The position numbers were made by a program, and so were the translations under genes. Below are positions 41,383-64,000 of a stretch of DNA of 64,000 nucleotides, piece by piece. Positions within the stretch are counted from its first letter, which is position 1. The number at the start of each line of letters is the position of its first letter. Location of the stretch: contig NZ_BOMW01000019.1 of NCBI RefSeq assembly GCF_016862395.1, positions 62,001 to 126,000 of the forward strand, given 5' to 3'. The notes below the pieces were generated by a model that saw only the letters and a program-made list of their open reading frames with translations, did no database searches and was not told the DNA's origin. Source of the stretch: Actinoplanes siamensis (lineage in GTDB: Bacteria > Actinomycetota > Actinomycetes > Mycobacteriales > Micromonosporaceae).

Positions 41383-41742
41383 TTGACAGGAACTCCGGGT
41401 ATGGGCCAGGTCCATGCCACGCAGGATCAGCTGAACTCGATGGCACAGCGCTGCGAGGACACCGGGCAGACCATCACCCGCGGCATGGCGCAGCTGCTGG
41501 ACCGGATCCAGTCGCTCGGCGGCGCGGGCTTCCAGGGCACGGCCAACAACGCGCTGCAGGACGTCTCGGTCCAGCTGAACGACGGCCTGACGAAGATCAT
41601 CAACGCGTTGGACGAGCTGGCCGGCAAGATGAGCAGCGCCTCCAAACAGTACGGCGTGCACGACGAGGACGCCGCCCAGGAGATCCGGGCCGCGGCCGCG
41701 TCCACCGGTGACAGTTCCGTCATCGGAATCCTGCGCGGCTGA
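41383..41742 (+). CDS. WXG100-family (EsxA/EsxB-like) protein
   Basis: A 119-residue helical hairpin protein: HATQDQLNSMAQRCEDTGQTITRGMAQLLDRI, then the turn GAGFQGTANNA, where the WXG turn has Phe for Trp, then LNDGLTKIINALDELAGKM. A C-terminal extension (YGVHDEDAAQEIRAAAAS) holds a YxxxD/E-like secretion signal (YGVHD). It pairs with the next gene as an ESX heterodimer secreted by the type VII system. TTG 41383 (MTGTPGMGQ) or ATG 41401 can start it. Confidence 0.85.
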   Translation: MTGTPGMGQVHATQDQLNSMAQRCEDTGQTITRGMAQLLDRIQSLGGAGFQGTANNALQDVSVQLNDGLTKIINALDELAGKMSSASKQYGVHDEDAAQEIRAAAASTGDSSVIGILRG

Positions 41743-41773
41743 GCGCGCCCGAGCGAGATCGGAGAGGCCAGAC

Positions 41774-42058
41774 ATGAGCATCACCTACAACTTCGGCCAG
41801 ATCAACGACGTCGCGATGGCCATCAGCACCTTCGAGGGCCAGATGGACCAGCAGCTCAACGACCTGTACACGGCTTTCACCGCGCTGTTCGCCGCGGACT
41901 GGCAGGGCAACGCCGGCGAGGCGTGCGACCAGGCCCGGCAGAAGTGGAACCAGGGTGCCGTGGAGATCAAGACCGCGCTGCAGAGCGTCGGTGTCAAGCT
42001 CGGCGCGTCCGCCGAGCGGATGCAGCAGATCGACCAGCAGATCGCCGCGGGCATGTGA
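41774..42058 (+). CDS. WXG100-family protein (second of the pair)
   Basis: A 94-residue classical WXG100 protein with FGQINDVAMAISTFEGQMDQ, the turn AADWQGNAGEACDQA carrying the WxG motif (about residues 43-45), then LQSVGVKLGASAERMQQIDQ. It is expected to form a four-helix bundle with its neighbour and to be exported together with it. ATG 41774 has GGAGAGG upstream. It follows the first WXG100 gene after 31 bp. Confidence 0.92.
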   Translation: MSITYNFGQINDVAMAISTFEGQMDQQLNDLYTAFTALFAADWQGNAGEACDQARQKWNQGAVEIKTALQSVGVKLGASAERMQQIDQQIAAGM

Positions 42059-42934: not shown

Positions 42935-45900
42935 GTGAGTGACGATCATGAGTTCATCACGACCATGCTGGACTACTTCTCGGAGTTCGAGGAGTGGCTT
43001 CCGGACTGGATCGACTGGCTCTCGCACATCGTCCTGGGCGAGATCCCGCTGGCCCGGGCGAACGACGTCTACGACCTCGCGGACCAGTGGGAACGGCTCG
43101 CCGACGAGCTGAACACCGCGTACCAGGACGTGCTGCGGGCGGCCGACCCGATCCTGGACAACTGGTCCGGCGACGCGGCGGCCGCCGCCTTCGTCGAGCA
43201 GTGGTACAGCTACCTCGAGGGGCTGCGCCAGTCCGCTGACGGCGCCGCCCAGATGCGCATGGGTGTGCAGGGTTTCGGCCTCGAGGTCGAGCTGATGAAA
43301 TATCTGGTCGCGATCAACCTGCTGATGCTCGCGGTCTCGATCTACATGCTGGTGGTCGCCGCGATCCCGTCCGGCGGCGCATCGCTCGGCGCCGCGCCGG
43401 GCCTGTTCACCGGCTTCCGGCTGGCGCTCGGCAAGCTCGCCGAGAACACCGTCGGCAAGATCGCCCAGATCGTCGTCCGGGTCGCGATCAAGCCGCTGAC
43501 CAACCTGTTCGTCGAACTGCCGGCCACCGCCGCGACCCGGGCCCTGGCCGCCGGCGCGCGGCTGGCCGTCCCGGTGGTCACCCGGATCTCGCTCGGCGAG
43601 GCGATCCCGGCCGCCGTGGTGAAGAACATCGTGACGACCGGCGCCCGGGACATCGCCCGGCGGTTCGGGCAGACCCTGGCCGGCCGGGCGGCCACCAACG
43701 TCGCCGCGCGGGGCGTCTCCAAGGCGGTCGCCAACCGGCTGGCCGCGCAGGCCCTGCGCGGCATGGCCGGCCGGCAGATCCGCGGCCGGCTGGCCGGCCA
43801 GACCACCCGAGCCGTGCAGAAGCAGCTGGCCAAGGAGATCCAGCAGCAGCTGATGAAGAACTGGGCCGGCAGGAAGCTCGGCGCCGAGGCCGCCGAGTCC
43901 GCGCTGACCGGGCTTGCCGTCCAGGAGGCCGCCCACGCCGGGCTGGGCAGGGAGTTCGTCCACTACGTCGGCAGCCGGGTCGCCTTCGGCGCCGGCTTCA
44001 TGGGCGGCGGCGACCTGGGCGCCCAGCTGCTGCAGATGGCCGAGGGCAACCGGGAGAGCCTGGACTGGGCGCATGTCCGCAACAGCGCGATGCAGGGCGG
44101 CGTCTTCGGCGCCGGCATGTTCGGCGGCCCGGTCGGCCACACCGTCGGCGGCGCGCTGGCCGGCGGCGGCATGGGCATCGTCGGCCAGCTCCAGCAGGGC
44201 GTCGGCATCAGCGGCGTCAACTGGACCGAGGTCGGCCACCAGACGGTGCTCGGCGCCTCGGCCGGCGTGATCTTCGGCGGCCAGACCCACCTGGAGATGA
44301 GCCACCTGGGCGGCGGCAGCCTCCGGATCGGCGACAACCTGCACCTGCTGTCCGGCGAGGACGGCGGCTTCGCCGCGATCTCCAGCGGCACGTATCGCGG
44401 CACCGCGGAACATCTGGTGCTCACCGACAACGGGTACGTCGCCTGGCAGGGCGCCGACCCGAGCGGCGAGGCGGGCGGCCTGCGGGTGGTGCCCACCGAG
44501 GTCTCCGCACGGCCCGAGGTGGCCGAGCACATCGCGGCGAACTGGGGTGACGCGCCCGCCTCGGTGGTGACCGGATCCGCCGCCCCGCCGGCCGGCGCCA
44601 CGCCGGTCGCTGCCCGTCCGGAGGCGCCGGCGGCCCGCGCCGAGGCGTCCGCTCCGGCCCGTGCCGACAGCGGCGGCGCCGGGCCGCGGCAGCCCGGTGG
44701 GGACGGTGGCGGCGAAGGCACGCCGGTCCGGGCCGCTGCCGACCCCGGCCGCGCGGGGGGAGACGTCTCCACCCTTGGGGGTACGGACGGAGCCCGCCCC
44801 GCCGCCGAGCCCGGGGCCGGGGAGCACGCGCCCGCGGACGGCGGCGGCTCACCGCCGGACAGCTCCAACCCAGGTCGTGACCGCACGCCCGCGGACGGCG
44901 GCGGCTCACCGCCGGACAGCGCCACCGCAGGCCGTGATCGCACGCCCGCTGACGGTGACGATGCGGCCGCGCCTGGTCGCGGCACGTCCGACCGCGCCGC
45001 GGTTGATCACCGTGCTCCCGAGCGCTCCACCGGGGACCGGCTGGCGACCGACAGTCCTGCTACCGATCGTGCGGTGGCGGAGCGGAGCGTCGAGGATCGG
45101 CCCGCAACGGATCGCACGGCCGATCACGGGCGCGGGGAGCATCGGCGGGACGACGCTCCCGCGCCAGTGGCCCGGGCCGGCGAAGCACCGGCGCGCGACG
45201 ATGTGGACAGTCCGGTCCCGCGCGGCGATGCGGCGGCCGGCGGGCGGGGCGCTGAGCCGGCGCACCGGGCCGACGGCGACTCGCCGGGCGCCGGGCATCG
45301 TGATGGCGGAGCGGCCGCGAGAGAGGGCGGCGACGAGGGCCCGCCGCCCGACGGGCCGCCGCACGATCCGACGGCGGCACGTCCGGACGACGCGGACCAC
45401 TCCATGCGGGACGCCGGCGCCGAGGTGGGCGAAGCCGCCACGCCGGAGACCATCCGGCAGGGCACGGTACGGATGGAGCTGCATCCTGAGTTCCCGCGGG
45501 TCGTCGAGTACCTCGAACAGCACGGCTTCCGGCTGGTCGAGGACCCGCAGGGCGCCCGCGCGGTCCAGCGCGACGTCTACGACGTGACGGGACGGAACCT
45601 TCTTCGCACCGAGCGAGAGGTCCGGCACCTCGACGGCATGCGCTTCCTCGATCTGGAACACGAGGTGGACCATGTCCGCCAGCTCGTGGACCGGTTCGAG
45701 GGCAAGGTGGCCACCGAGGCGGTCCGCGAGCGTCCCGGTAACACCCGGAAGCTGATCGAGAACGCGCAGGGGATTCTCGGCAAGCTGGACAACAAGGTCG
45801 TCGAATATCACGTTCGTCTGCAGGAGTACATCCGGCTCTCCGAACGCGGAGTGGACGCGGAAATCCTGGCCGCGCACGCCGGGGGCGTCGAGACGGCTCG

Positions 45901-48900
45901 AAGCGAGTATCAGGCCGCGGTGTCAGGGCGTGGCAACCAGAGGCGCGCCGATTGGGCGCGGCAGCACTTCGCGGACATTCCGGAACTCCGGCGGCGGTAT
46001 GAGGGGCTGCGGATCGCCCAGGGTGCGGACCCGGCCGCGGCACGGGCATACCCCGAGCTGCGAGACGGGCGGCCGATGTCCAAGGAGCCGATCGGCGATC
46101 GCGGTGCCTCGGACGGTGGTCAGGGCGTTCCGGGCCGGGGAGAGCCGGCCAGCGGGGAGGTGCGCCGGGTAGCGGAGTTCCGGCTGGTCGCGGTGGACGG
46201 GGCGGCTCCGGGGCGGGCGGTGGCCCGGCCCGAGGACGTCGAGCTGGTGGCGGACCAGGAGATCGGGCGGCTGATCGAGGGGCGTGAGCCCGGGGCGCCG
46301 GACCAGCCGCATCGGGCCGGGTTCGATCCCGGGTCGGGGACGATCCGGGTGCGGTACGGCGACGGCGTCGAGGTGGACGTCACGGTTCAGGTCAACGAGT
46401 CGCTGCCGCCGGGTGGAGCGCTGGTGCGGCGGCCGGCCCTGGCGGAACTCGGCGACGGGACCTGGCGGCAGGTGGAGCCGGCGGTGATCGGGCTGTCGCC
46501 GCACGTGCCGGGTGAGCCGGGGGCGCGGGCCGCGTACGTACGGGAGAATTTGGGGAATGCCTGGCGCACGCTGCACGGTGAGGTGGGGGATCAGCTCCGG
46601 CCGGCGGCCCGCGAAGCGGGGCCGGGAACGCACCACCCGGCACCGCCGCGGGACGGCGCGCCCGCCGGAGACCGCGAGCCGGCCGGCGACCCGGCGCGGC
46701 CGCACGACGGCGCCGCCGGAGATCGCGGACTCGCCGGGGATCGGGAGCCGGCCGGGGATCGCGGGTCTGGTGAAGAGGGTCCGCCGGCCGGGGAGCGTGG
46801 CGGGTTCGACGGGGCGCCGTGGGGAGACCGGGTTCCGCCGGACGACGCGCTGCGGGTGCTGGAGGAGCCCGGGCGGGGCGAGATTCCGCTGCGGGACCAC
46901 GACGCGGTGCCCCGGCATGCCGCCGAGCCGGCCGAGCCGCCGCTGCCGCCGCGGTTGAGCTCCGCGGAGATCCAGGCGATCCTGAGCGGGTCGCACCTGC
47001 CGGAGCAACTGCCGCGGTGGGCGGCCGAGCACCTGGCGGATCCGGGGGAGCACGGGGCGGCGCGGCCCAAACCGGCGGACGAGGTCGCGGAACGTCTGCG
47101 CGTGCTCGGGGACGACGCGGTGCGGCGGGTGACCCCGCACGGGTGGGCGGAGCGGCCCGCGGCCCGGTTCCCGGAGCTGGAAGTGCTCGAACCGCGGCGG
47201 CCGGAGCTCCAGGGGCCGGGGCCGGGGCCGCGGCGGCCGGACGACGGGCCGGGGCCGCGGCGGCCGGAGTTCGAGGGGCCGCGCGAGGAGAACATTCAGC
47301 GTGCATCCGATAATTCGGATTCGCCGATTGTGGAGCCGCCGGTGTCCGAGCGGGATGCCCCAGCTCCGCACGAGCACGACGACGGGCTGCCGGCGCACGA
47401 TCCGGCCGATCCGAGCCGGCCGTGGGCGCCGGGGGAGACGCCGCCGATCGACGAGCTGATCCCGCGGACCGACGCCGAGGCGGCGGCGCGCAGGGACGCC
47501 ATCGCGGCGGCCGTGCAGGCCAGGCTGGACGGGCACGAGTTCGCCGGCCTGCGGGTGCGGGTGAAGTTCGAGGGCGTGTACGCGGGCCCCGACTACCTCA
47601 CCGTGCACCTGGAGATCCGGTCGGCCGACGGGCAGCGCGGGCTCGGCGACATCATCCGGGCCTTCGACCGGGCGCCGGACGGCACGCTCGGGGTCAAGCA
47701 CTCGCACCTGGCGCTGCACGAGGAGGCGCAGGGGCAGGGCTTCGCCCGCGAGTTCAACCGGCACCTGGACGGCTGGTACCGGGAGTCCGGCGTCTCCCAC
47801 GTCGAGGTGCGCACCGCCTGGGTCGGCGGGTACACCTGGGCCAAGGCCGGCTTCGAATGGCAGGCGCTCGGCGGCCACGACGTCTTCCGCGGCCTGGGGC
47901 GGGAGGTCGCCGAGCTCGACCGGCACCTGTCCGGGTTGGACCGGTACGGGCCCGACGACCTGCGGCCGCTCTACGAGAAGTTCGGCGGGTCGACCCCGGA
48001 CGAGCTGGCCCGGCACATGCGCGAGCAGGGCCAGCAGGCCAGGGCGCTGATCAACCGGGCCGAGCGGGTGCAGAACGGGGCGCTGCCCGGGCACGAGTAC
48101 CCGACGCCGCAGGAGGTGGCGCGGCTCGGGTACCGCGAGCCGCTGCACGCTCGGGCCACCGGGCCGGAGCGCGCCGCCCAGCACTGGCTGGGCAAGGACG
48201 CGATGATCGACACCAAGTGGACCGGCCGCCGCTACCTGGACGGGCCGGCGCCCGAGGAGTGGCTCGGGTACCACCCGGCGCTGCGCGCGGAGCCGGGCGG
48301 CGCGGTCACGCACACCGCCGCCCCGATCCACGCCACCGGGTTCGTGCCGGCCGGGCGGGGCGCGCACCTGCCCGACGTGACAGTCGAGGAGATGCACGCG
48401 GCCACCGGGAACGTGCGGCCGCGGGACTTCGCCGGCCGCGACATCGTGGAGGTGGTCAGCGACGGCGCGATCGTCCGGGTGACCCTGGCGGACGGCGGCG
48501 CCCGGCACTTCGTGACCGAGGTCGGCCGGGGGATGGACAGCCTCGCGGAGACCACCGTGCGGGCGGGCACCGAGGCGGACCCGCACGTGGTCCGGGTCAA
48601 CCACCGGGTGGCGCCGGAGCAGCTGAGCCGCGTCTGGGTGCACGAGATCACCGAGACGTTGGCGATCAAGCACGCCGAGGAGGCCGGGCGCCCGGCGCAG
48701 GGGCTGGTGCGGCGCGCCGCGGCGGCCGTCGGGCAGGCCGTCGGGCCGGGCGACGGCACGCCGCGGCCGCCGGTGGATCCGCACGTGGCGGCCCGGATCA
48801 ACGAGCGGGTGCACCTGCAACGGCAGTTCCGGGAAACGGCCGGGGACCCGGTCGAGCGGAACCGGCTGCGCGACGAGATCGCCGGGGTGGAGCGGGACCT

Positions 48901-51900
48901 GCGGGCGCTCGGGCACCCGGTGCGCCAGCAGGCCGCGGCGCGCGACGGCGGCCCTCCGGACGGCACCGCGCCGCCACCGGCGGACAGCCGCGCGGACGGG
49001 CGGCCCGACGAGAGCGCGCCGCCGCGGATCGACGAGCGGCGGCGGACCGCGCCGTTGCGGCTGCTCGCCTTCGACGACGTGCCGGACGGGCCGATGCAGC
49101 GCGGGGTGCTGTGGGACCTGGCCGGGGCGCTCGGCGCGGGCGGGGACCACGTCGCGCTGCGGGCGCCCGGCCTGGAGGCGGGCGAGCTCGGGCCGAACGT
49201 GCGGGGCGTCCCGGCCGACCCGGTTCCCGGGGTGACCGGGCGGATCAGCCCGCTGCTGCGGCCCGACCACCTGCCCGCCGACACCGACGTGATCGTCGGC
49301 TATGGACAGACCGCCGGTGTCGCGCAGGCGCGCCGGGACGCCTACCCGGACGCCCGGGTGGTGCAGATCGTCGACAGCCTGCCCACCGAGCCCGCGCACC
49401 TGGACGTGCTGTCCCGGGCCGACCTGGTGGTCGCGGCCGGGCCGGAGCTCGCCGACGGCCTGCGGGCCGCGTTCCAGCGGCACGGCGCCGAACCGGTGCC
49501 ACCGGTGCACGAGGTGGTCCCGCCGGTCGACGGCGGCGGCCCGCCTCCGCCGGTGCGCGATCCCGGCCGGGGCGGCTACCGGGTGCTGGCCGCCGGCGAC
49601 GAGCGGGCGCAGCTCGCGGCCGCCGGGACGGTGCGGGAGCTGCGCTCGCAGGGCGTGGACGCGCGGCTCACGGTGGCCGTGCGCGACCCGGAGGGCCCGG
49701 AGACCCGCTGGCACCGGGACCGGCTGTCCGAGGTGGCGGACAGCGAGGTGACCGTCCGCCGGCTGCCCGGCGACGTGGCCGGGCGGCGCGAGCTGCTGCA
49801 CGGCGCGGACGTGGTGATCGACCCGGTGGCCCGCCCCGAGCTGGACACCCTGGTGCTGCAGGCCACCGGCGACGGCGTGCCGGTCCTGGTGCACCCCGGC
49901 AGCGGCGCCGGGCGCCTGCTGGGCGATCCGCTGCGGGTCGCCGACGATCTCGGCGCCGGTTCGGTGGTCCGGGACGGCGGCGACACCGCCGGGTGGTCCG
50001 ACCGGATTCGGCGTACGTTCCAGGAGCTGCCCGCCGAACGCGACCGCGCCCTGGCGTTGCGGGACGAGATGCGGCAGAGGTACGGCGCGGAGGCGGCCGC
50101 CCGCAGCGTGCACGACGCGATCAGCGGCCTCGGCGAAGGGGTGGCGCGGGTCGGCCACGAGCGGTTCCACGACACGCTGGACCCGCGGGAGGTGGTCCGC
50201 CGCAACGCCGCCACCGACGCCGTGGCCGGCCCGGACGCGGTGCGGGTGATGACCGTCTGCACCGAGTACGACTCCGACGCCGGCGGCGTGATCACCGCGA
50301 ACCGGGAGCTGAGCGAGAGCTTCCGGACCGCCGGCGCCGAGGTGTACGGCCGGGTCTGCCTGGTGTCGGCGGAGCGGCCGCACCTCACCCGGCTGGACAC
50401 CGAGCAGGGCATCCACGTGCGTGGCGTGCACGAGGTCTGGGGCGTGCTGGACGAGAACGGCCGGCCGGACCGCCGCGCGATGTCGATGCTGCTGGACAAC
50501 CTGCCGCCGGACGTCGACGTGATCGTCGGCAACTCCCGCTTCGGCGGCGGCGCGGCCCGGATCCTGCGCGAGCACGTCTACCCCGGCGCCAAGTACGTCC
50601 ACGTGCTGCACACCTCGCCCGAGGTGCTCGACGCGGTGCGTGGCAAGCCGGGCGAGGGACTGGACCGGGCCGCCACCGAGCGCGCGCTGATGACCGGCGC
50701 CGACCTGGTCACCGGCATCGGCCCGCTGCTCGGGCGGGAGGCCGCCCGGCTGGCCGCCGAGGCGGTGCCGGGTGACCCGCCGCCGGCGCACACCATCGTC
50801 TCGGACATGCCGCGGGACACCGGGCCGGCGCCCTCACGAATCCCGGGCGACCGGTACGAACTGCACGTGCGCGGCCGTGCCGACGACACGATCAAGGGTG
50901 TCGAGATGGCCGCCCGGATGGTGCGTGAGCTGCGTGCCGAGGGACTGGACGCGCACCTGACCGTGCGCGGCGCCCCGGCCGGCGCGGGGCCGCGGATGGC
51001 GGAGCGGCTCGGCGAGCTCGCCGGGCATCCGGTCGAGGTGCGCGAGTTCGTGCCGTCCGGCACCCCGCAGGGCCGGGCCGAGCTGCGGCGCGACCTGGTC
51101 GGCGCGGACCTGGTGCTGATGCCGTCCCTCCAGGACGGTTTCGGGCTGGTGGCCAGCGAGGCAGCGCAGGCCGGGGTGCCGGTGGTGGTCGGCGAGGGGA
51201 CCGGCGCCGGGATGTTCTTCGGCGACCCCCGGTACGTCCCGGAGGGGCTGGGCGAGGCGGCGACCGTGCGGGACGGCAACACGGTGCCGGCGCTGCGGGA
51301 CCGGGTGGACCGGGTGGCCGGGGACGCGGCGGTCCTGCCCGAGCACGTGGTGGACGGCGTGCTGCGCGACGTGGACGAGGCCCGCCTCGGCGCCTGGACC
51401 GACCACGTGCGGTCGGCGTTGCGCGGGCTCGACGAGCACTACCGGCGGGCCGCCGAGCTGCGTGACTTCCTGAGCGAGCGGTATCCGCCGGGCAACGCGG
51501 CCCGTGGGGTGCTGGACGTGCTGCGCGGGGTGGCGCCGGCGGATCCGCCCTATCTGCCGTCGGCCGTGCCCGAGACCAGGCACGGCGCGGAACCTCCGGC
51601 GGCCGCGGCGCACGGTTCCGGGACGGCGTTGGGGGAGACCCGGAGCGGCGTACCGGAAAATCGCATCTCATCGGAGGTGCCGCGCGGGCCCGAGGTGGGT
51701 CAGGAGGCCGCCGGGGGGCACTCGGGGCCGCCGGAAAGCGAGCCCGCCGGACCGGACCGGGAACCGGGCGGGCGCGGCGGTGCGGCGGATCGGGAGCCGC
51801 GTCTCGGCGATCTGCTGCCGCACCCCGGCCGGGAGCCCGGACCCGGGCCGGACGCCGTCCGCGAGCACCTCACCGGGCAACTGGACGGGCGCCGCGCCGG

Positions 51901-53647
51901 CGACCGGGTGCTGCGCCTGGAGGGCGACCCGCCGATCACGGTGGGCCACGACGAGGTGGTCGTCCGGTTCCGCGTCGAGGGGCCGGGCGGCGAGCACCTG
52001 GGCAGCGAGACCCGGGTGCTGTCCCGGGACCCGGACGGCAGCCTGGTCGCCCGGCACGAGGGGCGCTCGGTGGACCCGTACGCCGACCGGCGGCTCATCG
52101 AGTGGTACCGCGAGTCCGGAGTGGACCGGATCGAGGTGCGGGCGGGCGGCCGGGACGGCTACGAGCTGGCCCGGGAGGGCTACGGCTGGGGACGCGACGT
52201 CGACCCGGAGGTGGTCGGCGAGATCCTGCGGGACGTGGACGCCCGGGTGCGCCGGATGGAGCGCGCCCTCGACGGGTCCACCGACTCGCCGGCGCTGCGC
52301 GAGCGGTTCGGCGGTCGGACGCCCGAGGAGACCGCCGCGAACCTGCGCCGGGAAGCGGACGCCGGCCGCGACCTGCTGGAACGTGCGAAGCACCCGTTCG
52401 GCAGCCGGGAGTTCCCGGCGCCCCGGGACATCGCGCGGGCCGGCACCGAGGACGGCTGGCACCGCGGCCGCACCTCGCTCGGCGAGGAGGTGATGACCGG
52501 GCGGGAGTGGCCGGCCGGGTTGTCGCTGCACGACCCGGAGTCCCGGGCGGCCGGCTCGCCGTCCCCGCCGGCCGCGGTCCCGCGCCCGCCGGAGCCCCGG
52601 CCGGGCGAGACCGCGCCGGTGCGCCGGTACACCGAGTCGCAGCTGAGCTGGGACGGCCGGCGGGACACGACGTACGGCCAGAAGCTCCTGCGCGGGCCGG
52701 ACGGCAAGGATCACTTCCCCGGCGACCGGGTGGGCACCCGCCGGGGCGCCGACGGCCGGCTGCGGGACGCGCAGACGTACGTCCGGGACGACAACCCGCC
52801 GCCGCGCGCCGACCTCGACGCCCGGGCCGTCCGGGCCTCCGCCGAGCACCGCTGGGACACGTCGGGCGAGGCCGCGACCGACCGGGCGGTGCGGGACGCG
52901 GTGGCGCACCGCGACGGCATCCGCGGCCGGATGGACGCGCTCTGGGACGGTCACCTGGAGCCGATCCTGCGGGTGCTGTCCGGGCACGGCATCGACCTGA
53001 CAAGGCCGGCGCTCGGCCGCGCCTCCCTGGACGCCGCGCTGGCCGAGGGCAGGCGTTTCCTGACCCGCGAGCAGCGGCTGGAGCTGCGCGCCCGCGGCCG
53101 GGAGTTCATCAAGCTCGACGACCAGTTGCACCAGGCCAGCGAGCGGCTCGGCGCCGCCGGGGGCGACCTGGTGCGGGAGCGCCGGTTCCCCGGGGCCCGC
53201 CAGCTGACCGGCAGCGTCGAGGGCGAGCGCGGCACGCCGGACAACGTCGACCGCTGGCTGCTGTACGACGACCCGGACCACGGCCCGGTGCTGGTCGCCT
53301 TCGAGGAGAAGGGCGCGGGCAGCGGCCTGAACGCCCGTTGGGTCGAGGATCCCGCCGACCCGGGCGGCGCGAACATCCGCGCGGAGCAGTGCAGCCCGGA
53401 ATATCTGCGGCATATGCTGCAGAACGACGTCAAACTCCGGGCCCTGCTGGAGGACCGTCCGGAGCTGCGGCCCGTCCTGCGCGGCATCGTCGGCTCCGAG
53501 CGCCTGGGCAGCCTGCGCTACCTGTTGGTGCACACCGGCGTGACCGGGCACGTCACCGCGACGGACTACCTGCTGGCCCACGACCGCCTGCGGCCGGGAT
53601 CGATCCGGCTGGCCGGCGAGAAACCCGCCGAGGGACCACGACCATGA
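42935..53647 (+). CDS. 3570-residue type VII polymorphic-toxin effector with zincin-like, GNAT-like, twin glycosyltransferase-like and nuclease-like modules
   Basis: Domain order by residue. 38-112: helical WXG-like domain with NWSGDAAAA at 76. 121-146: hydrophobic helix, then a CpnT-like Ala/Gly helical region to about 480. 550-840: disordered, with 19-residue repeats. 845-1010: domain with H909-E-V-D-H913 in LEHEVDHVRQL. 1080-1220: beta-rich linker domain. 1506-1650: GNAT-like fold with EEAQGQGFAREFN and YTWAKAGFEW. 1800-1990: linker domain with VWVHEITETLA. 2040-2400 and 2436-2866: two GT-B glycosyltransferase-like modules; the second keeps LMPSLQDGFGLVASEAAQAG. 2969-3196: degenerate GNAT-like repeat. 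3229-3570: PD-(D/E)XK-like nuclease with D3438 and E3457-E-K3459. The GTG start follows the WXG100 genes; the stop overlaps the next start. Confidence 0.85.
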   Translation: MSDDHEFITTMLDYFSEFEEWLPDWIDWLSHIVLGEIPLARANDVYDLADQWERLADELNTAYQDVLRAADPILDNWSGDAAAAAFVEQWYSYLEGLRQSADGAAQMRMGVQGFGLEVELMKYLVAINLLMLAVSIYMLVVAAIPSGGASLGAAPGLFTGFRLALGKLAENTVGKIAQIVVRVAIKPLTNLFVELPATAATRALAAGARLAVPVVTRISLGEAIPAAVVKNIVTTGARDIARRFGQTLAGRAATNVAARGVSKAVANRLAAQALRGMAGRQIRGRLAGQTTRAVQKQLAKEIQQQLMKNWAGRKLGAEAAESALTGLAVQEAAHAGLGREFVHYVGSRVAFGAGFMGGGDLGAQLLQMAEGNRESLDWAHVRNSAMQGGVFGAGMFGGPVGHTVGGALAGGGMGIVGQLQQGVGISGVNWTEVGHQTVLGASAGVIFGGQTHLEMSHLGGGSLRIGDNLHLLSGEDGGFAAISSGTYRGTAEHLVLTDNGYVAWQGADPSGEAGGLRVVPTEVSARPEVAEHIAANWGDAPASVVTGSAAPPAGATPVAARPEAPAARAEASAPARADSGGAGPRQPGGDGGGEGTPVRAAADPGRAGGDVSTLGGTDGARPAAEPGAGEHAPADGGGSPPDSSNPGRDRTPADGGGSPPDSATAGRDRTPADGDDAAAPGRGTSDRAAVDHRAPERSTGDRLATDSPATDRAVAERSVEDRPATDRTADHGRGEHRRDDAPAPVARAGEAPARDDVDSPVPRGDAAAGGRGAEPAHRADGDSPGAGHRDGGAAAREGGDEGPPPDGPPHDPTAARPDDADHSMRDAGAEVGEAATPETIRQGTVRMELHPEFPRVVEYLEQHGFRLVEDPQGARAVQRDVYDVTGRNLLRTEREVRHLDGMRFLDLEHEVDHVRQLVDRFEGKVATEAVRERPGNTRKLIENAQGILGKLDNKVVEYHVRLQEYIRLSERGVDAEILAAHAGGVETARSEYQAAVSGRGNQRRADWARQHFADIPELRRRYEGLRIAQGADPAAARAYPELRDGRPMSKEPIGDRGASDGGQGVPGRGEPASGEVRRVAEFRLVAVDGAAPGRAVARPEDVELVADQEIGRLIEGREPGAPDQPHRAGFDPGSGTIRVRYGDGVEVDVTVQVNESLPPGGALVRRPALAELGDGTWRQVEPAVIGLSPHVPGEPGARAAYVRENLGNAWRTLHGEVGDQLRPAAREAGPGTHHPAPPRDGAPAGDREPAGDPARPHDGAAGDRGLAGDREPAGDRGSGEEGPPAGERGGFDGAPWGDRVPPDDALRVLEEPGRGEIPLRDHDAVPRHAAEPAEPPLPPRLSSAEIQAILSGSHLPEQLPRWAAEHLADPGEHGAARPKPADEVAERLRVLGDDAVRRVTPHGWAERPAARFPELEVLEPRRPELQGPGPGPRRPDDGPGPRRPEFEGPREENIQRASDNSDSPIVEPPVSERDAPAPHEHDDGLPAHDPADPSRPWAPGETPPIDELIPRTDAEAAARRDAIAAAVQARLDGHEFAGLRVRVKFEGVYAGPDYLTVHLEIRSADGQRGLGDIIRAFDRAPDGTLGVKHSHLALHEEAQGQGFAREFNRHLDGWYRESGVSHVEVRTAWVGGYTWAKAGFEWQALGGHDVFRGLGREVAELDRHLSGLDRYGPDDLRPLYEKFGGSTPDELARHMREQGQQARALINRAERVQNGALPGHEYPTPQEVARLGYREPLHARATGPERAAQHWLGKDAMIDTKWTGRRYLDGPAPEEWLGYHPALRAEPGGAVTHTAAPIHATGFVPAGRGAHLPDVTVEEMHAATGNVRPRDFAGRDIVEVVSDGAIVRVTLADGGARHFVTEVGRGMDSLAETTVRAGTEADPHVVRVNHRVAPEQLSRVWVHEITETLAIKHAEEAGRPAQGLVRRAAAAVGQAVGPGDGTPRPPVDPHVAARINERVHLQRQFRETAGDPVERNRLRDEIAGVERDLRALGHPVRQQAAARDGGPPDGTAPPPADSRADGRPDESAPPRIDERRRTAPLRLLAFDDVPDGPMQRGVLWDLAGALGAGGDHVALRAPGLEAGELGPNVRGVPADPVPGVTGRISPLLRPDHLPADTDVIVGYGQTAGVAQARRDAYPDARVVQIVDSLPTEPAHLDVLSRADLVVAAGPELADGLRAAFQRHGAEPVPPVHEVVPPVDGGGPPPPVRDPGRGGYRVLAAGDERAQLAAAGTVRELRSQGVDARLTVAVRDPEGPETRWHRDRLSEVADSEVTVRRLPGDVAGRRELLHGADVVIDPVARPELDTLVLQATGDGVPVLVHPGSGAGRLLGDPLRVADDLGAGSVVRDGGDTAGWSDRIRRTFQELPAERDRALALRDEMRQRYGAEAAARSVHDAISGLGEGVARVGHERFHDTLDPREVVRRNAATDAVAGPDAVRVMTVCTEYDSDAGGVITANRELSESFRTAGAEVYGRVCLVSAERPHLTRLDTEQGIHVRGVHEVWGVLDENGRPDRRAMSMLLDNLPPDVDVIVGNSRFGGGAARILREHVYPGAKYVHVLHTSPEVLDAVRGKPGEGLDRAATERALMTGADLVTGIGPLLGREAARLAAEAVPGDPPPAHTIVSDMPRDTGPAPSRIPGDRYELHVRGRADDTIKGVEMAARMVRELRAEGLDAHLTVRGAPAGAGPRMAERLGELAGHPVEVREFVPSGTPQGRAELRRDLVGADLVLMPSLQDGFGLVASEAAQAGVPVVVGEGTGAGMFFGDPRYVPEGLGEAATVRDGNTVPALRDRVDRVAGDAAVLPEHVVDGVLRDVDEARLGAWTDHVRSALRGLDEHYRRAAELRDFLSERYPPGNAARGVLDVLRGVAPADPPYLPSAVPETRHGAEPPAAAAHGSGTALGETRSGVPENRISSEVPRGPEVGQEAAGGHSGPPESEPAGPDREPGGRGGAADREPRLGDLLPHPGREPGPGPDAVREHLTGQLDGRRAGDRVLRLEGDPPITVGHDEVVVRFRVEGPGGEHLGSETRVLSRDPDGSLVARHEGRSVDPYADRRLIEWYRESGVDRIEVRAGGRDGYELAREGYGWGRDVDPEVVGEILRDVDARVRRMERALDGSTDSPALRERFGGRTPEETAANLRREADAGRDLLERAKHPFGSREFPAPRDIARAGTEDGWHRGRTSLGEEVMTGREWPAGLSLHDPESRAAGSPSPPAAVPRPPEPRPGETAPVRRYTESQLSWDGRRDTTYGQKLLRGPDGKDHFPGDRVGTRRGADGRLRDAQTYVRDDNPPPRADLDARAVRASAEHRWDTSGEAATDRAVRDAVAHRDGIRGRMDALWDGHLEPILRVLSGHGIDLTRPALGRASLDAALAEGRRFLTREQRLELRARGREFIKLDDQLHQASERLGAAGGDLVRERRFPGARQLTGSVEGERGTPDNVDRWLLYDDPDHGPVLVAFEEKGAGSGLNARWVEDPADPGGANIRAEQCSPEYLRHMLQNDVKLRALLEDRPELRPVLRGIVGSERLGSLRYLLVHTGVTGHVTATDYLLAHDRLRPGSIRLAGEKPAEGPRP
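44829..44920 (+). repeat. In-frame 57-bp direct repeat in the effector linker
   Basis: The same 35-bp sequence (starting CGCCCGCGGACGGC, ending CCGGACAGC) occurs at 44829-44863 and 44886-44920, a period of 57 bp or 19 codons. It encodes PADGGGSPPDS twice in the disordered linker, and a third, weaker unit follows. Confidence 0.8.
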
Positions 53648-54537: not shown

Positions 54538-55563
54538 ATGACGTACCCGCTGGCGCGGACCCGGCAGGAGGCGCACCTGCACATCGACCTCACTCCGTGC
54601 GAGTGCGGCGACCGGCGGCTGGTCACCGCAGGCGAGGCGGTGACGCTGCCGGACGGCACGCCCGGGCGCCGCTACGCCGGCCGGTGTCCGGGCTGCGGGC
54701 GCGACCGGCTGTTCGTGTTCCGGGTGCCGGAGGTCCCCGAGGACTCGGCGGGCGCCCGGGAGATCGTGTACGGGCGCGGCACCCGGCCGTCCGAGCTCCT
54801 CGACCCGGGGCAGTGGCTCTGGGCGGCGGAACAGTACGCGGATGCCGTACCGGCGAATCCCGGACATCTCGCCGGCGAACCGCGAGCCACCGCGCGGACC
54901 TGGCTGATGGCGGCCGTGGCCGCCCTCCGCGAAGCTGTCAAGTTCATCCCGGACGGCGCCGACCGGGTGCCCGCCGAGGCGTTCCGCAGCGCGCCCGGCC
55001 GGGACCGCTACGTCCGGGAGCCGGCCGCCTTCACCCGGCAGCGCCTGGTCGATCTGCGGCTGGGTGTGGAACGGCGGCTGCGGGCCCTGCGCGACGCGCC
55101 GGCGGCGCCGGACCCGGACGCGGTCCGGCGGCAGGCCGCCGAGAGCCGGGCGGTGGAGGCGTGGGCCCGGAGGCACGGCCTGGAGCGGGCCGCCCTCGGC
55201 GCGGGCACCGCGGAGCAGAACCGCGAGATCGAGCGGGAGCTGCGCGCGCTGAACGGCCAGGACCCGGAGACCGGTCTGGGCCGCGCCGGCCCGCGTGGCG
55301 GGTTCGCCGCGTTCCGGCAGCTGATCAGCGGGCTCGAGGCGGAACTGGCGGGCGACGTGCCGCAGCGGGACCTGCGGATCGGGCTGGCGCTGGCCGCCTA
55401 CCAGGCGTGGCTGGAGCGGCACCGGATCGACGACACCGCATGGCGCGACCGGCTCTGGACCGGCAGCGTGGTCTGGGACCTGACCGACGCGGACCTGCCG
55501 CCGGCCGGGGCGGTGTGGGAGATGGTCGCCGCGGCGCGCGCCGCGGCCCGGCGGCAGCTCTAG
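54538..55563 (+). CDS. Zinc-ribbon protein, paralogue A of the locus
   Basis: A 341-residue protein. The N-terminus has a treble-clef-like ribbon: TRQEAHLHIDLTPCECG, then RRYAGRCPGCGRDRLFVFRVP, with Cys at about 20, 22, 43 and 46. RPSELLDPGQWLWAAEQY follows, then a long helical C-terminal part with ELRALNGQDPETGLGRAG. Two more proteins of this window (56264 and 59931) share this N-terminus, so it is a locus-specific family. Function unknown; metal binding is inferred from the four Cys. It starts 7 bp after the TY-Chap-like gene. The stop overlaps the convergent small gene. Confidence 0.7.
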   Translation: MTYPLARTRQEAHLHIDLTPCECGDRRLVTAGEAVTLPDGTPGRRYAGRCPGCGRDRLFVFRVPEVPEDSAGAREIVYGRGTRPSELLDPGQWLWAAEQYADAVPANPGHLAGEPRATARTWLMAAVAALREAVKFIPDGADRVPAEAFRSAPGRDRYVREPAAFTRQRLVDLRLGVERRLRALRDAPAAPDPDAVRRQAAESRAVEAWARRHGLERAALGAGTAEQNREIERELRALNGQDPETGLGRAGPRGGFAAFRQLISGLEAELAGDVPQRDLRIGLALAAYQAWLERHRIDDTAWRDRLWTGSVVWDLTDADLPPAGAVWEMVAAARAAARRQL

Positions 55564-56220: not shown

Positions 56221-56263
56221 CGGGCCACCTTATCAACGGCGCCGGTGTGGCAGGGTGGGTCGC

Positions 56264-57289
56264 GTGTTCTCCGCGCAGACCTACGCCGAGGCGTATCTCT
56301 TCATCGATCTCACCCCCTGTGAGTGCGGGGAGACCGGGTTCACGCCGTCCGCGGAGCCGGCCACGCTGCCCGGCGGGGACACGGGCCAGCGGTGGCACGG
56401 CGTCTGCCCGCGGTGCGGCCGGCAGCGCTCGTTCGTCTTCCGGTTCCCCGCGGGCGCCGACAGCCGGGAGTTCAGCAACCGTCGCGAGCCGTCCGAGCTG
56501 ATCGACGCCGGCCAGTGGCTGTGGGCCGCCGAGCGGTACCTGTCCGGCGTCCCGGGCGGCATCGGCGAGATCCGCGCGCTGCCCGAGGAGGCACGCCGGA
56601 CCGCCGGGATGCTGCTCGGCGCCGCCGAGTCCGCGCTGGACGAGGCGGCGAAGTTCTTCGACGGCGAGGACCTGCCCGACTCGGCACTGTGGACGGCGTG
56701 GAGCCGGCGGGCCCGGGACGCCGGGCCGGACCGGTTCCGCCGGTCCTGGCTGCGCGACCGGCAGAGCCACGTGCACCTGCTGATGAGCGCCCTGCCGGCG
56801 TCGGCCGGCTTCGACGGGCCGGCCGACGCCGGCCATCTGGAGGTGGTCCGCCGCCGCGCCGAGGTCCGCGCGATGTGGGTGGCACGGCACGGGCTGGCCG
56901 GGCTCGACGACGACCGGGCCACCCCGCGGCAGCGGCACGAGCTGGTCCGGGCCGAACGCGCGGCGTCCGGGCTGGACGTCGCGACCGGGTTCTCGCTGCT
57001 GTCGCCGCCGGACGCGCTCGCCGCGTACAACGCGCTGGTCTGGGCGGTCGAGCGGGAGTTCGCGCGGGCGCCGGCGGACCGCGACAGGCGCCTGGCCGCG
57101 GCGGCCGCGGTACGCGCCGGCTGGCTGGCCCGGACCGGGCAGCCGGGCTGGGACCCGGACGAGGACGTGTACGCGATCCCCGCCGACCGGCTGCCACCGG
57201 CCGAGGCGGGCTGGGAGATGGTGCGCTCGGCGCGGGCGGCGGCCGGGATGGATCCGTACACCGGGGACTTCGCCGGACCGCTGCCGTGA
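56264..57289 (+). CDS. Zinc-ribbon protein, paralogue B of the locus
   Basis: A 341-residue protein with TYAEAYLFIDLTPCECGE, WHGVCPRCGRQRSFVFRFP and EPSELIDAGQWLWAAERYL, clearly homologous to the protein at 54538, then a helical tail with AYNALVWAVEREFAR. The four ribbon Cys are conserved. GTG 56264 (VFSAQTY) or GTG 56255 may start it. The stop overlaps the start of the HNH-SUKH fusion gene by 4 bp (GTGA), so the two are coupled. Confidence 0.7.
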   Translation: MFSAQTYAEAYLFIDLTPCECGETGFTPSAEPATLPGGDTGQRWHGVCPRCGRQRSFVFRFPAGADSREFSNRREPSELIDAGQWLWAAERYLSGVPGGIGEIRALPEEARRTAGMLLGAAESALDEAAKFFDGEDLPDSALWTAWSRRARDAGPDRFRRSWLRDRQSHVHLLMSALPASAGFDGPADAGHLEVVRRRAEVRAMWVARHGLAGLDDDRATPRQRHELVRAERAASGLDVATGFSLLSPPDALAAYNALVWAVEREFARAPADRDRRLAAAAAVRAGWLARTGQPGWDPDEDVYAIPADRLPPAEAGWEMVRSARAAAGMDPYTGDFAGPLP

Positions 57290-59930: not shown

Positions 59931-60425
59931 GTGCTGCCGGTTGCCAGGACCCGTGACGAAGCCCATCTCTACATGGACCTGCACGGCTGTCCGGAGTGCG
60001 GCGGGGTGGACGTCTCCTGGGCCGAGGCGCTCGTCGACCGGTCCGGTGTGCTGGCGCGCCGCTATCACGGATCGTGCCGGGCCTGCGGGCGGTCCCGGGA
60101 GTTCGTGTTCGCGCTGCCCGACCGGCCGACGCCGCCGCGGGCGGGGGAGCACGTGACGTTCGGCTCCGACACCTCGCGGCTGTTCGACGCCGGGCAGTGG
60201 GTGGAGATCGCGGACATGCTGACGCTCGCCGCGGGTCTGTCCGACCCGGACTCGGCGCGGATCGCCGCCGCGTGCCTCGACGAGGCGCTGAAGTTCTGCC
60301 CGGAAGGCGCCGCCGAACTGCCGGACGAGGCGTTCTGGAGCCCCGCGGGGCTCGCCTTCCGGGCGCGGTCGCCGGAGCGGTTCCGGCGCGCCGACCTGCT
60401 GGCCCGGCGAGCGGCACTGGCATGA
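59931..60425 (+). CDS. Zinc-ribbon protein, short paralogue C
   Basis: A 164-residue protein: ARTRDEAHLYMDLHGCPECG, RRYHGSCRACGRSREFVFAL and RLFDAGQWVEIADML, homologous to the N-terminal 160 residues of the two longer zinc-ribbon proteins of this locus, but lacking their helical tail. Four ribbon Cys are kept. GTG 59931 matches the paralogues' starts. Its stop overlaps the mycosin start, so it is translated with the mycosin. Function unknown. Confidence 0.68.
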   Translation: MLPVARTRDEAHLYMDLHGCPECGGVDVSWAEALVDRSGVLARRYHGSCRACGRSREFVFALPDRPTPPRAGEHVTFGSDTSRLFDAGQWVEIADMLTLAAGLSDPDSARIAAACLDEALKFCPEGAAELPDEAFWSPAGLAFRARSPERFRRADLLARRAALA

Positions 60426-61654
60426 TCCTCGGTCGTACGGCCGCGGTGGCCCTTCTCGTCGCTCCGCTCCTGCTCACCCCGGCGCCGGCCCGCGCCGCCG
60501 ACTGCGCGACCGCCGGGCAGGTCACCGGGACCGCCGCGTGGCCCCGGCAGATGCTTGCGGTCGACTCGGTCAGCCAGTTCACCCGGGGCGGCAACGTCGT
60601 GGTGGCGGTGCTGTCCACAGGCGTCCAGGCCAGTCACCGGCAACTCGCCGGGCGGGTGCTGGCCGGGCGCGACGCGGACGCCGGGCGGGGCACCGCCGAC
60701 ACCGACTGCCTCGGGACCGGGACACAGGTGGCCGGGGTGATCGCGGCGTCCCCCGAGGAGGGCAGCCCGGTCGCGGGGGTGGCCGGCCGGGCCACCATCC
60801 TGCCGGTACGGGTGGCGCCGTCCACGCCGGGCGACGAGCCCTCGGCGGCCGGGCTGGCCCGCGGTGTCGAGTTCGCCGTGCAGAACGGCGCCCAGGTGAT
60901 CGTGGTGGCGTCCGCTGTCTACCAGGACAGTGACCGGCTGCGGTCGGCGGTGGCCGCGGCGGTGGCCACCGGCGTGCCGGTGGTCGCCGCGGTGGGTGAT
61001 CTCGGATCGGCCCAGGACCGGAATCCGGTGCCCTATCCGGCGTCCTATCCGGACGTGATCGGCGTCGGGGCGATCGATCAGAGCGGGCGGATCTACGACA
61101 GATCCCAGCATGGGAGGTACGTCGACCTGGTCGCGCCCGGGGTGGCGGTGCCCACCCTGCAGGGTGGCGATGCCGGGCCCCGGGGGTTGGTCGAGTCCGA
61201 CGGGACGGCGCTCGCCGCGGGATATGTGGGCGGGACGGTGGCGTTGATCCGCAGCCGGCTCGGGCGGATGCCGGTCGCCGAGGTGACCCGGGTGCTGAAG
61301 GCCTCGGCCAGTCCGGCTGTCGACGGCGACGCTTTCGGGGCCGGGGTGGTGAATCCGTACGCGGCGGTGACCGGGAAGGCCGCCACCGGAAAGGGACGGG
61401 CGCTGCCGGGTCTGACGGCGCCGCCGGCTGCGCCGGGGTCGGCGGAGAGCCGGCGGCGGATGGTGGCGTTCACCGGCGCGACGATCGCCGGGATGGCGGT
61501 GGTGGCGGTTCTGCTGGTGACCGCGGCGATCCGGCGGAGTCGGCGGCAACACTGGCGGCCGACCACGGCGCCGCCCCTGCCGGAGTACGACGAGCCGGTC
61601 GAGCCCGGCCCTCCGGTGATGCTCCTCGACCCCCCACCCGGCGGAGCCCGCTGA
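60422..61654 (+). CDS. mycP: Mycosin-like subtilisin (S8) without catalytic triad
   Basis: A 410-residue protein with signal peptide (VALLVAPLLLTPAPARA), S8-type core and C-terminal transmembrane helix (IAGMAVVAVLLVTAAIRRSRR), the layout of ESX mycosins. The catalytic positions are changed: VAVLSTGV with Ser65 for Asp, DCLGTGTQVAGVIAA with Thr99 for the His of GHGT, DGTALAAGYVGG with Ala263 for the Ser of GTS, and AAVGDLG with Asp193 for the oxyanion Asn. The fold signatures, such as VPYPASYPDVIGVGAI, stay intact. In mycobacteria, MycP has a protease-independent role in stabilising the ESX membrane complex, so this is a probable structural pseudoprotease. Confidence 0.9.
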   Translation: MILGRTAAVALLVAPLLLTPAPARAADCATAGQVTGTAAWPRQMLAVDSVSQFTRGGNVVVAVLSTGVQASHRQLAGRVLAGRDADAGRGTADTDCLGTGTQVAGVIAASPEEGSPVAGVAGRATILPVRVAPSTPGDEPSAAGLARGVEFAVQNGAQVIVVASAVYQDSDRLRSAVAAAVATGVPVVAAVGDLGSAQDRNPVPYPASYPDVIGVGAIDQSGRIYDRSQHGRYVDLVAPGVAVPTLQGGDAGPRGLVESDGTALAAGYVGGTVALIRSRLGRMPVAEVTRVLKASASPAVDGDAFGAGVVNPYAAVTGKAATGKGRALPGLTAPPAAPGSAESRRRMVAFTGATIAGMAVVAVLLVTAAIRRSRRQHWRPTTAPPLPEYDEPVEPGPPVMLLDPPPGGAR

Positions 61655-63103: not shown

Positions 63104-63119
63104 TCAGTTGGTGGGGGCG
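63037..63119. repeat. 30-bp direct repeat at the eccB 3' end
   Basis: A 30-bp sequence starting TGCGGTGGCCGGGGTCAG occurs at 63037-63066 and, identically, at 63090-63119, a period of 53 bp. The second copy includes the eccB stop codon (63104-63106) and the codons for PAPTN; the first lies beyond the gene. Confidence 0.85.
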
Positions 63120-64000
63120 GGCTTGGCGGCCGCCGCCGGGTCGAGGGTGACGCCCGCCGGGATGGCGTTGACCAGAGCTGTCGGGACCACCGTCGCCGAG
63201 CCCGGGGCGTAGCCGAGACGGCCCAGAGCGTCCGCGTCCGGCACCGCGTGCCGCAGACCGAGATCGGTCACCACCTGGTAGCCGCCCGAGCCGGGCACCC
63301 GGACCAGGGCGAACCGGCCCGCCGGAACACCCACCGCGTCGGCCAGGGCGCGGCCGCCGGAGGCGCCGCTGGTGGGGACCGCCGAGGACAGGGCGGAGGC
63401 GGCCCCGCCGACGCTGATCGCCGGGGCCTCGGCGGCGGCCCGGGTGACCGCGCAGGCGGTCGTACCGGCCGCGACGGTGGCCAGTGTGGGCGGCGTCTCC
63501 GGCGGCTGCACCTCGGCGTTGCCGGCCGGCTTGAGCTGCGGGGCCCCCGAGACCACGGTGACCGGGACGTTCTTCGGGTCGGCCGGGAAGCTCGCGTTGA
63601 GCACCGCGCGCTGCAGGGCGCTGATCGGCAGCAGCCCGTTGTCCAGCACCAGGTAGAACTGCTTGCCGTCGACACCGACGTCGACCGCCAGGACCTGGCC
63701 GTTGGTGAAGCCGGGGACCAGTCTGGACGCGGCGCCGCGGTTCTGCACCCCGACGGCGGCGATGTCCGCGCCGGCCGGGAGGGCGTTCAGCCAGGCCGTG
63801 CCGACGGGGGTGGGGTCGACCGCCCCGTACAGCGCGGGAAGTGTGGTCCTCGAGTTTTGGATCTTGTGTTTCCGGCCGTGCCAGATCAGCTCGGTGTCGG
63901 TGCCGCCGTCACTGACCAGCAGGCCTCGCTCGCCCAGGTCGGCGCCCGCGGGACCGGCCGCGCCGACCAGCAGGACGGCGGCCGGGTTCTCGCCCGGCAC
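63104..64000 (-). CDS. eccB: Type VII secretion core protein EccB (3' part, cut by window edge)
   Basis: At least 298 residues of the C-terminal periplasmic part; the 5' end with the single transmembrane helix lies beyond 64000. Typical EccB features: GLLVSDGGTDTELIWHGRKH, TTLPALYGAVDPTPVGTAWLNALPAG, the Cys-containing strand TTACAVTRAA, and YQVVTDLGLRHAVPDADALGRLGYAPG with VLLVGAAG-like strands. EccB forms part of the ESX membrane complex in the cell envelope with EccC, EccD, EccE and MycP. It is transcribed towards the mycosin, opposite to it. Confidence 0.92.
   Translation of the reverse strand: MPGENPAAVLLVGAAGPAGADLGERGLLVSDGGTDTELIWHGRKHKIQNSRTTLPALYGAVDPTPVGTAWLNALPAGADIAAVGVQNRGAASRLVPGFTNGQVLAVDVGVDGKQFYLVLDNGLLPISALQRAVLNASFPADPKNVPVTVVSGAPQLKPAGNAEVQPPETPPTLATVAAGTTACAVTRAAAEAPAISVGGAASALSSAVPTSGASGGRALADAVGVPAGRFALVRVPGSGGYQVVTDLGLRHAVPDADALGRLGYAPGSATVVPTALVNAIPAGVTLDPAAAAKPAPTN

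What the first reader, a model, noticed from the sequence alone, without database searches (positions are those of the whole stretch)
60422..61654. A mycosin whose whole catalytic machinery is substituted
Asp, His and Ser of the S8 triad read Ser65, Thr99 and Ala263, and the oxyanion-hole Asn reads Asp193, while signal peptide, core signatures and C-terminal anchor are intact. Random decay would not be expected to keep the frame and scaffold while changing exactly these four sites. Mycobacterial MycP is known to be needed for ESX complex stability independently of proteolysis, so this could be a natural structural-only mycosin, or work beside a second active mycosin elsewhere in the genome.
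Basis: partly seen in the sequence, partly recalled or inferred. Interest (0 to 1): 0.92.

Follow-up and report, generated by a model that had tools for sequence, protein, structure and literature searches.

The report
Conserved protease-dead mycosin of an ESX
A soil bacterium's type VII secretion system carries, as its only nearby mycosin, a protein that has lost its cutting site but is kept intact by selection in many relatives, so it most likely serves as a structural cap of the secretion machine rather than as a protease.

Summary
Confirmed. The gene at 60422-61654 (+) is a mycosin homologue (S8 fold, signal peptide, C-terminal anchor) in which D, H, N and S of the active site read S65, T99, D193 and A263. 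It is not a decaying pseudogene. In a 60-genome sample of its genus (Actinoplanes, from one named hit), 23 genomes hold 25 copies; all 25 lack all four residues and 24 keep the frame. In 26 intact genus copies, eight of 84 positions that active mycosins conserve are always changed; seven of the eight are active-site. The same 23 genomes carry one ESX type (EccC at least 80% identical), copy for copy. Codon ML gives omega 0.13, against 0.10 for its EccB. Twelve more genera of the family, and one of another family, hold relatives at different stages: serine always lost, histidine usually, aspartate sometimes; one relative keeps the triad. A cytosolic tail (EPxEPGPPVML) is conserved with most. 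No second mycosin lies within the roughly 20 kb fetched per locus; intact mycosins sit elsewhere in the genomes. Best reading: a natural pseudoprotease acting as the structural EccB cap, as engineered protease-dead MycP1/MycP5 can. That role is inferred, not shown. The papers searched report no naturally dead mycosin.

The parts
60422..61654 (+). pseudomycosin gene (410 aa): mycosin homologue without catalytic residues
60422..60499 (+). signal peptide (residues 1-26, by hydropathy only)
60614..60616 (+). Ser65 codon at the catalytic Asp position
60716..60718 (+). Thr99 codon at the catalytic His position
60902..60910 (+). V161-V162-A163 where active relatives have N-x-S of the INxS motif
60998..61000 (+). 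Asp193 codon at the oxyanion-hole Asn position
61208..61210 (+). Ala263 codon at the nucleophile Ser position
61220..61222 (+). Gly267 codon at the Pro of the GTSxAxP motif
61463..61531 (+). C-terminal transmembrane segment (residues 348-370)
61541..61630 (+). predicted cytosolic tail RRxxWRP...EPxEPGPPVMLL, conserved in the genus set and in most of the wider set
63104..64000 (-). EccB, C-terminal part; the gene runs on beyond the window (L007:5104-6459), followed there by EccD, EccC, EccE and an EccA-like ATPase
59931..60425 (+). small CxxC protein directly upstream, overlapping the pseudomycosin start by 4 bases; paralogues nearby and at many related loci
41407..41742 (+). WXG100 protein (Esx-like), first of a pair
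41768..42058 (+). WXG100 protein (Esx-like), second of a pair
42935..53647 (+). 3570-aa protein with N-terminal WXG100-like domain and GT4-conflict domain; candidate substrate of the ESX (inferred)

Best explanation
The protein is a mycosin turned pseudoprotease: the only mycosin found at its own ESX (type VII) locus, exported by its signal peptide and anchored by its C-terminal helix. It most likely does what mycobacterial MycP does apart from cutting: its S8 domain binds and caps the extracytoplasmic EccB assembly, and its transmembrane helix ties that cap to EccD, holding the EccB-EccC-EccD-EccE complex together. The conserved cytosolic tail may add a contact on the inner side. Shown here: loss of the active site, purifying selection, one-to-one coupling with one ESX lineage in the genus sample, no second mycosin in the stretch fetched at each locus, and graded loss among relatives. 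Inferred: lack of any proteolysis, the cap role, and the tail's role.
For: All four sites replaced in 25 of 25 copies from 23 of 60 genus genomes. Two genomes with two such ESX loci (G019, G028) have a pseudomycosin at each, and an EccB tree pairs the copies as the mycosin tree does. Of 84 positions near-invariant in actives, eight are changed in all 26 intact genus copies and seven of those are active-site. Omega 0.130 for pseudomycosin, 0.101 EccB, 0.083 EccD, 0.068 active mycosin, the same 9 genomes. One significant mycosin-like domain per pseudomycosin locus fetched. Mycobacterial precedent: MycP1 S354A and MycP5 S461A still support secretion (PMC5082899, passages); a MycP5 trimer caps the EccB5 chamber and its helix binds EccD5 (PMC8131196, passages).
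Against: No binding or secretion data. Mycosins with intact triad exist elsewhere in every genome checked: 30 of 30 read in the genus (22 of the 23 pseudomycosin genomes among them) and in all 28 other genomes, so help in trans cannot be excluded. The two-sequence AlphaFold model failed (pLDDT 34.8), so the EccB interface was not modelled. Omega is about twice that of the active mycosin. One copy (G046) is frameshifted. One always-changed position (49) is not active-site. MycP5's buried interface Trp (PMC8131196) was not mapped. G090, in the wider set, lacks the tail.
Confidence: 0.72

Rival explanations
1. Partnership in trans: the pseudomycosin is a scaffold or regulator that works with an active mycosin of another ESX, for example in a mixed trimer, so that this ESX still has substrates processed.
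For: An orthologue of the C53 mycosin was found in 60 of 60 genus genomes, triad intact in 30 of 30 read. All 28 other genomes checked have a mycosin over the TIGR03921 cut-off with intact triad.
Against: The C53-type gene is universal in the genus sample, with or without the pseudomycosin ESX (60 against 23 of 60), so it is not coupled. Each duplicated ESX keeps its own pseudomycosin. Mycobacterial mycosins stabilise their own respective complexes (PMC5082899, passages).
Confidence: 0.15
2. The fold is reused as a binding platform: the vacated cleft holds or escorts substrates in the secretion chamber without cutting, or senses a ligand, as proposed for the S8 pseudoprotease CspC.
For: Replaced sites are mostly not free to drift: positions 65, 193 and 263 lie at the 36th entropy percentile of 270 domain columns, and 193 is D or E in 24 of 24 rows of A1. 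Natural S8 pseudoproteases with new roles exist (abstract beginnings in a listing).
Against: Position 99 varies widely (67th percentile); no ligand or substrate evidence.
Confidence: 0.1
3. Relaxed decay: a gene on its way out, not yet broken.
For: One of 25 genus copies is frameshifted (G046); omega is higher than in the active mycosin; in a neutral simulation 32% of 200 runs still had no stop at 30% amino-acid change, so an open frame in one copy proves little.
Against: Omega 0.13; 24 of 25 genus copies open; loss of the nucleophile in 13 genera of the family (own genus included), with fold and usually tail retained.
Confidence: 0.03

Closest known systems
MycP1/MycP5 mycosins of mycobacterial ESX systems (TIGR03921, S8 peptidases)
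   Same: S8 domain, signal peptide, C-terminal membrane helix, locus with eccB/C/D/E; best NCBIfam model
   Different: The M. tuberculosis mycosins carry Asp-His-Ser (PMC5156307, passages); this one and its relatives do not. It also carries a conserved cytosolic tail EPxEPGPPVML not seen in the nine active genus relatives aligned
Laboratory protease-dead mycosins (MycP1 S354A, MycP5 S461A in M. marinum; PMC5082899)
   Same: Mycosin without protease activity that would still support the ESX
   Different: Made by mutation, one residue; here natural, shared by many genera, all four catalytic positions gone in the genus, kept by selection
CspC and CspA, S8 pseudoproteases of Clostridioides difficile (PMC6636752, PMC12880746; listing only)
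   Same: Naturally inactive subtilisin-like proteins with a retained role
   Different: Spore germination sensors, soluble, not part of a secretion machine

Membership tests
Mycosin (MycP), T7SS serine protease | S8 subtilase domain | tested here: met
   PF00082, 1.5e-32, over the cut-off
Mycosin (MycP), T7SS serine protease | Asp-His-Ser triad and oxyanion Asn | tested here: not met
   S65, T99, D193, A263
Mycosin (MycP), T7SS serine protease | Score over the TIGR03921 equivalog cut-off (278.75) | tested here: not met
   209 bits, yet the best-matching NCBIfam model
Mycosin (MycP), T7SS serine protease | Signal peptide and single C-terminal transmembrane helix | tested here: met
   Hydropathy and alignment; no dedicated predictor was run
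Mycosin (MycP), T7SS serine protease | Gene in a locus with eccB, eccC, eccD (eccE) | tested here: met
Mycosin (MycP), T7SS serine protease | Caps EccB and stabilises the membrane complex | not testable with these tools
   Needs biochemistry; a structure model was not usable
S8 pseudoprotease | S8 fold with lost triad, kept by selection | tested here: met
S8 pseudoprotease | No proteolytic activity | not testable with these tools
   Inferred from missing residues

The most novel reading that the evidence does not exclude
One ESX lineage has lost mycosin proteolysis several times independently: its EccC clade (51 rows) contains a fully intact triad (G120) nested among copies that lost Ser (with or without Asn) alone, Ser and His, or everything, nearly all keeping the fold and a cytosolic PPxxL tail. 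In this lineage the mycosin would be a purely structural clamp linking the outer cap to the cytosolic side, and proteolysis an optional feature of type VII secretion.
Probability: 0.35. Interest if true: 0.82.

Novelty: new variant of a known kind. Interest (0 to 1): 0.7.

Why it matters
Why type VII systems keep a mycosin whose cutting is dispensable for secretion has rested on point mutants and cryo-EM. A natural, widespread and selected set of mycosins without an active site is an independent test of the structural role, done by evolution. The relatives include stages from intact to fully vacated, which shows which parts are kept when cutting is not needed (S8 core, cysteines C28 and C96, anchor, mostly the tail), and so where the EccB/EccD contacts may lie. 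It also warns that automatic annotation calls such proteins serine proteases: some Ser-less members score over the TIGR03921 cut-off (G128, G109, G143 and G114).

Tried and rejected
It was not searched or interpreted, and I did not hand in other genomes' proteins.

Nei-Gojobori dN/dS (median 0.479 over 276 pseudomycosin pairs, 0.499 over 26 of 28 active pairs) does not model the extreme GC bias; I rest on the codon ML instead (omega as last logged by IQ-TREE). In one search the active-mycosin set was misaligned (4 codons kept) and was redone.

Pseudogene: rejected for the clade (see rivals). Misread register: rejected by active controls and subtilisin structures. Single origin of the loss: left open. 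The first tree (70 rows, catalytic columns in) put 48 dead rows and one active row in one clade (92/90). The second (74 rows, seven active-site columns out, f13 added) needs 3 changes, and 0% of its 200 bootstrap trees have one; holding all dead rows together is not rejected (p-AU 0.42). The EccC tree (63 rows, short search, simple model) groups the ESX lineage at SH-aLRT 100 with the active G120 inside; G032, G128, G071, G084 and G074 were not given to it.

Wider spread: the class sample gave no other genome at 1e-85 (0 of 393 besides G000), but only 4 candidates per genome were scored and the profile was genus-biased. Family hits at or below about 314 bits were mostly not read residue by residue, so the family counts are lower bounds.

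Literature: searched for natural inactive mycosins or Actinoplanes/Micromonospora T7SS in the open-licence PMC library; no listing or passage seen reports one. Most listed papers were not opened, and subscription papers are largely not in it.

Rows dropped before counts: A1 holds 24 of the 25 genus copies (G046 left out). The tree dropped L073, L154, L162 and L156b of 74 proteins; the tree dropped the same four of 78.

Full report
What is there. The ORF at 60422-61654 encodes 410 aa: a signal peptide, an S8 domain, one transmembrane segment near residues 348-370 and a basic, then proline-rich tail. Pfam calls it Peptidase_S8 (1.5e-32). Its best NCBIfam model is the T7SS mycosin, but at 209 bits against a cut-off of 278.75. 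Aligned as a family profile to subtilisin-type structures, S65, T99, D193 and A263 fall at the catalytic Asp, His, oxyanion Asn and Ser.

Where it lies. The window is part of contig C19 of an 8.2 Mb genome. About 1.4 kb past the gene's end lies EccB, then EccD, EccC, EccE and an EccA-like ATPase. A WXG100 pair and a 3570-aa protein with a WXG100-like N-terminus and a GT4-conflict domain lie 7-19 kb upstream. A search of the genome with the mycosin model gave no other hit on this 220-kb contig. Elsewhere the genome has a canonical mycosin with intact triad next to another EccC (C53; 316 bits, over the cut-off; triad read) and a mycosin-like orphan on C35 (257 bits, under the cut-off), whose triad reads intact by eye. 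One named relative identifies the group: Actinoplanes liguriensis (L096), whose contig length equals that of G032:C179.

The genus. Of 60 genomes sampled from the genus, 23 (window genome included) hold 25 copies at 51-100% identity; all 25 have all four residues replaced, as S/A, T/I/S/V/L/A, D/E and A/G. The next best hits, at 37-46%, read D-H-N-S in the 7 of 7 fetched. Twenty-four of the 25 are open frames; the G046 copy is split between two frames. EccC of at least 80% identity is listed for the same 23 genomes and for none of the other 37, again as 25 copies counting the fragmented one of G032; the other genomes' best is 59% (the weak end of the list was cut). G019 and G028 have two such ESX loci and a pseudomycosin at each; the copies pair alike in mycosin and EccB trees. 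In contrast, all 60 genomes have an orthologue of the C53 mycosin, with D-H-N-S in 30 of 30 read, 22 of the 23 pseudomycosin genomes among them.

Selection. On the same nine genomes, codon ML (GY+F3X4) gives omega 0.130 for the pseudomycosin, 0.101 for EccB, 0.083 for EccD and 0.068 for the active mycosin. It evolves faster than the active mycosin but is clearly constrained. Of 84 columns near-invariant (at least 14 of 15) in active mycosins, the window protein keeps 66. Across 26 intact genus copies (two of them, G088 and G191, from the family sample), eight of the 84 are changed in every copy: 65, 99, 161, 163, 193, 263 and 267, all in the S8 active-site motifs, and 49, which is not (motif assignment from general knowledge of subtilases). 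The replaced sites 65, 193 and 263 are more conserved than the median column; 99 is not. An open frame alone would prove little: 32% of 200 neutral simulations had no stop at 30% amino-acid change.

The family and beyond. A profile of the genus set, searched in 200 family genomes, found at least 24 genomes of 12 other genera with a relative lacking the nucleophile (one of them, G084, a fragment). Site readings include DHND, DHTD, DHVD and DHDA (g13), DREA (g25), DTDA and DTDR (g22, g6), DTDG and DTDA (g34, g21, g11, g31, g26), ETDG and DSNG (g44), GADA, SADA and GQDA (g4), and SLDG (g37, g31). Three genomes of another family of the order (f13) read AGDA, SVNA and AFDA. Of these 27, Ser is replaced in 27, Asn in 24, His in 23 and Asp in 9. 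In 25 of the 27, eccB, eccD and eccC matching the window's (EccC 63-74%) lie in the stretch fetched; G071 showed only eccC and eccE, and G084 only eccA. G120 keeps D-H-N-S and has the tail; its eccA is about 2.6 kb and its eccB-eccD-eccC about 23 kb away. On the EccC tree the lineage is one clade (51 of 63 rows, SH-aLRT 100) with G120 inside, which favours more than one loss; the mycosin trees do not settle it. If order can be read from the states, Ser went first, then His, then Asp; the trees do not prove the sequence.

The tail. In the 24-row genus alignment E391, P392, E394, P395, P397, P398, M400 and L401 are invariant. In the broader 24-row alignment P395, P398 and L401 still are (G090, which lacks the tail, was not among its rows). 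The nine active genus relatives aligned have no such tail. The tail is present in G120 with its intact triad, so it is not simply a product of the loss.

How it most likely works. In mycobacteria, protease-dead MycP1 and MycP5 still restore secretion, and mycosins are needed for stability of the complex (PMC5082899, abstract beginning and passages). In the ESX-5 structure three MycP5 cap the EccB5 chamber, let the EccB dimers trimerise and contact EccD5 by their helix (PMC8131196, passages). The parts needed for that (fold, anchor, co-inheritance with EccB) are what this set keeps, and the cutting site is what it drops. I therefore read it as a natural structural-only mycosin. This step is inference. 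The main open point is whether active mycosins from other loci help: all 28 other-genus genomes checked (27 with a dead copy, plus G120) have one with intact triad.

Membership. It is descended from mycosins and probably works like their structural half, but it fails the triad and the TIGR03921 cut-off, so it should not be filed as a mycosin serine protease. 'Pseudomycosin' is my label. Known S8 pseudoproteases such as CspC (listing only) are a parallel, not the same family.

Print. Eight searches of the open-licence PMC library showed no report of a natural inactive mycosin in the listings and passages seen. A survey of T7SS variants (PMC11217815) and one of ESX evolution that includes Micromonosporales (PMC4791881) mention mycosins as proteases or core parts in the passages seen.

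Noticed in passing
window 42935-53647 (+): 3570-aa protein with N-terminal WXG100-like domain (PF25547) and a GT4-conflict glycosyltransferase domain (PF20706), just after a WXG100 pair and a YbaB-like protein: looks like a type VII secreted conflict effector.
   Followed up: partly
window 54538-55563, 56255-57289, 59931-60425 (+): Family of CxxC-containing proteins (no Pfam match for the two of three scanned), repeated near the pseudomycosin and at many related ESX loci (for example L056, L057, L061, L129, L131, L135); the last one overlaps the pseudomycosin start by 4 bases.
   Followed up: partly
L007:15434-17092 (G000:C19:135434-137092, beyond the window): EccA-like protein with a right-handed beta-helix N-terminus (PF13229) before its AAA domain; it matches EccA (TIGR03922) only in its C-terminal half.
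   Followed up: no
L013:1378-2493 (G000:C35): Mycosin-like gene with triad intact by eye and a C-terminal anchor but GC3 of only 0.54, far below the 0.8-0.98 of ORFs called around it (a listing filtered at 0.8); looks acquired. No match to the window's ecc proteins in 20 kb around it.
   Followed up: partly
L073 (G046): The one genus copy whose reading frame is split; a real break or an assembly error cannot be told apart here.
   Followed up: no
G128, G109, G143, G114: Ser-less members of the lineage score over the TIGR03921 equivalog cut-off, so automatic annotation would call them serine proteases.
   Followed up: no
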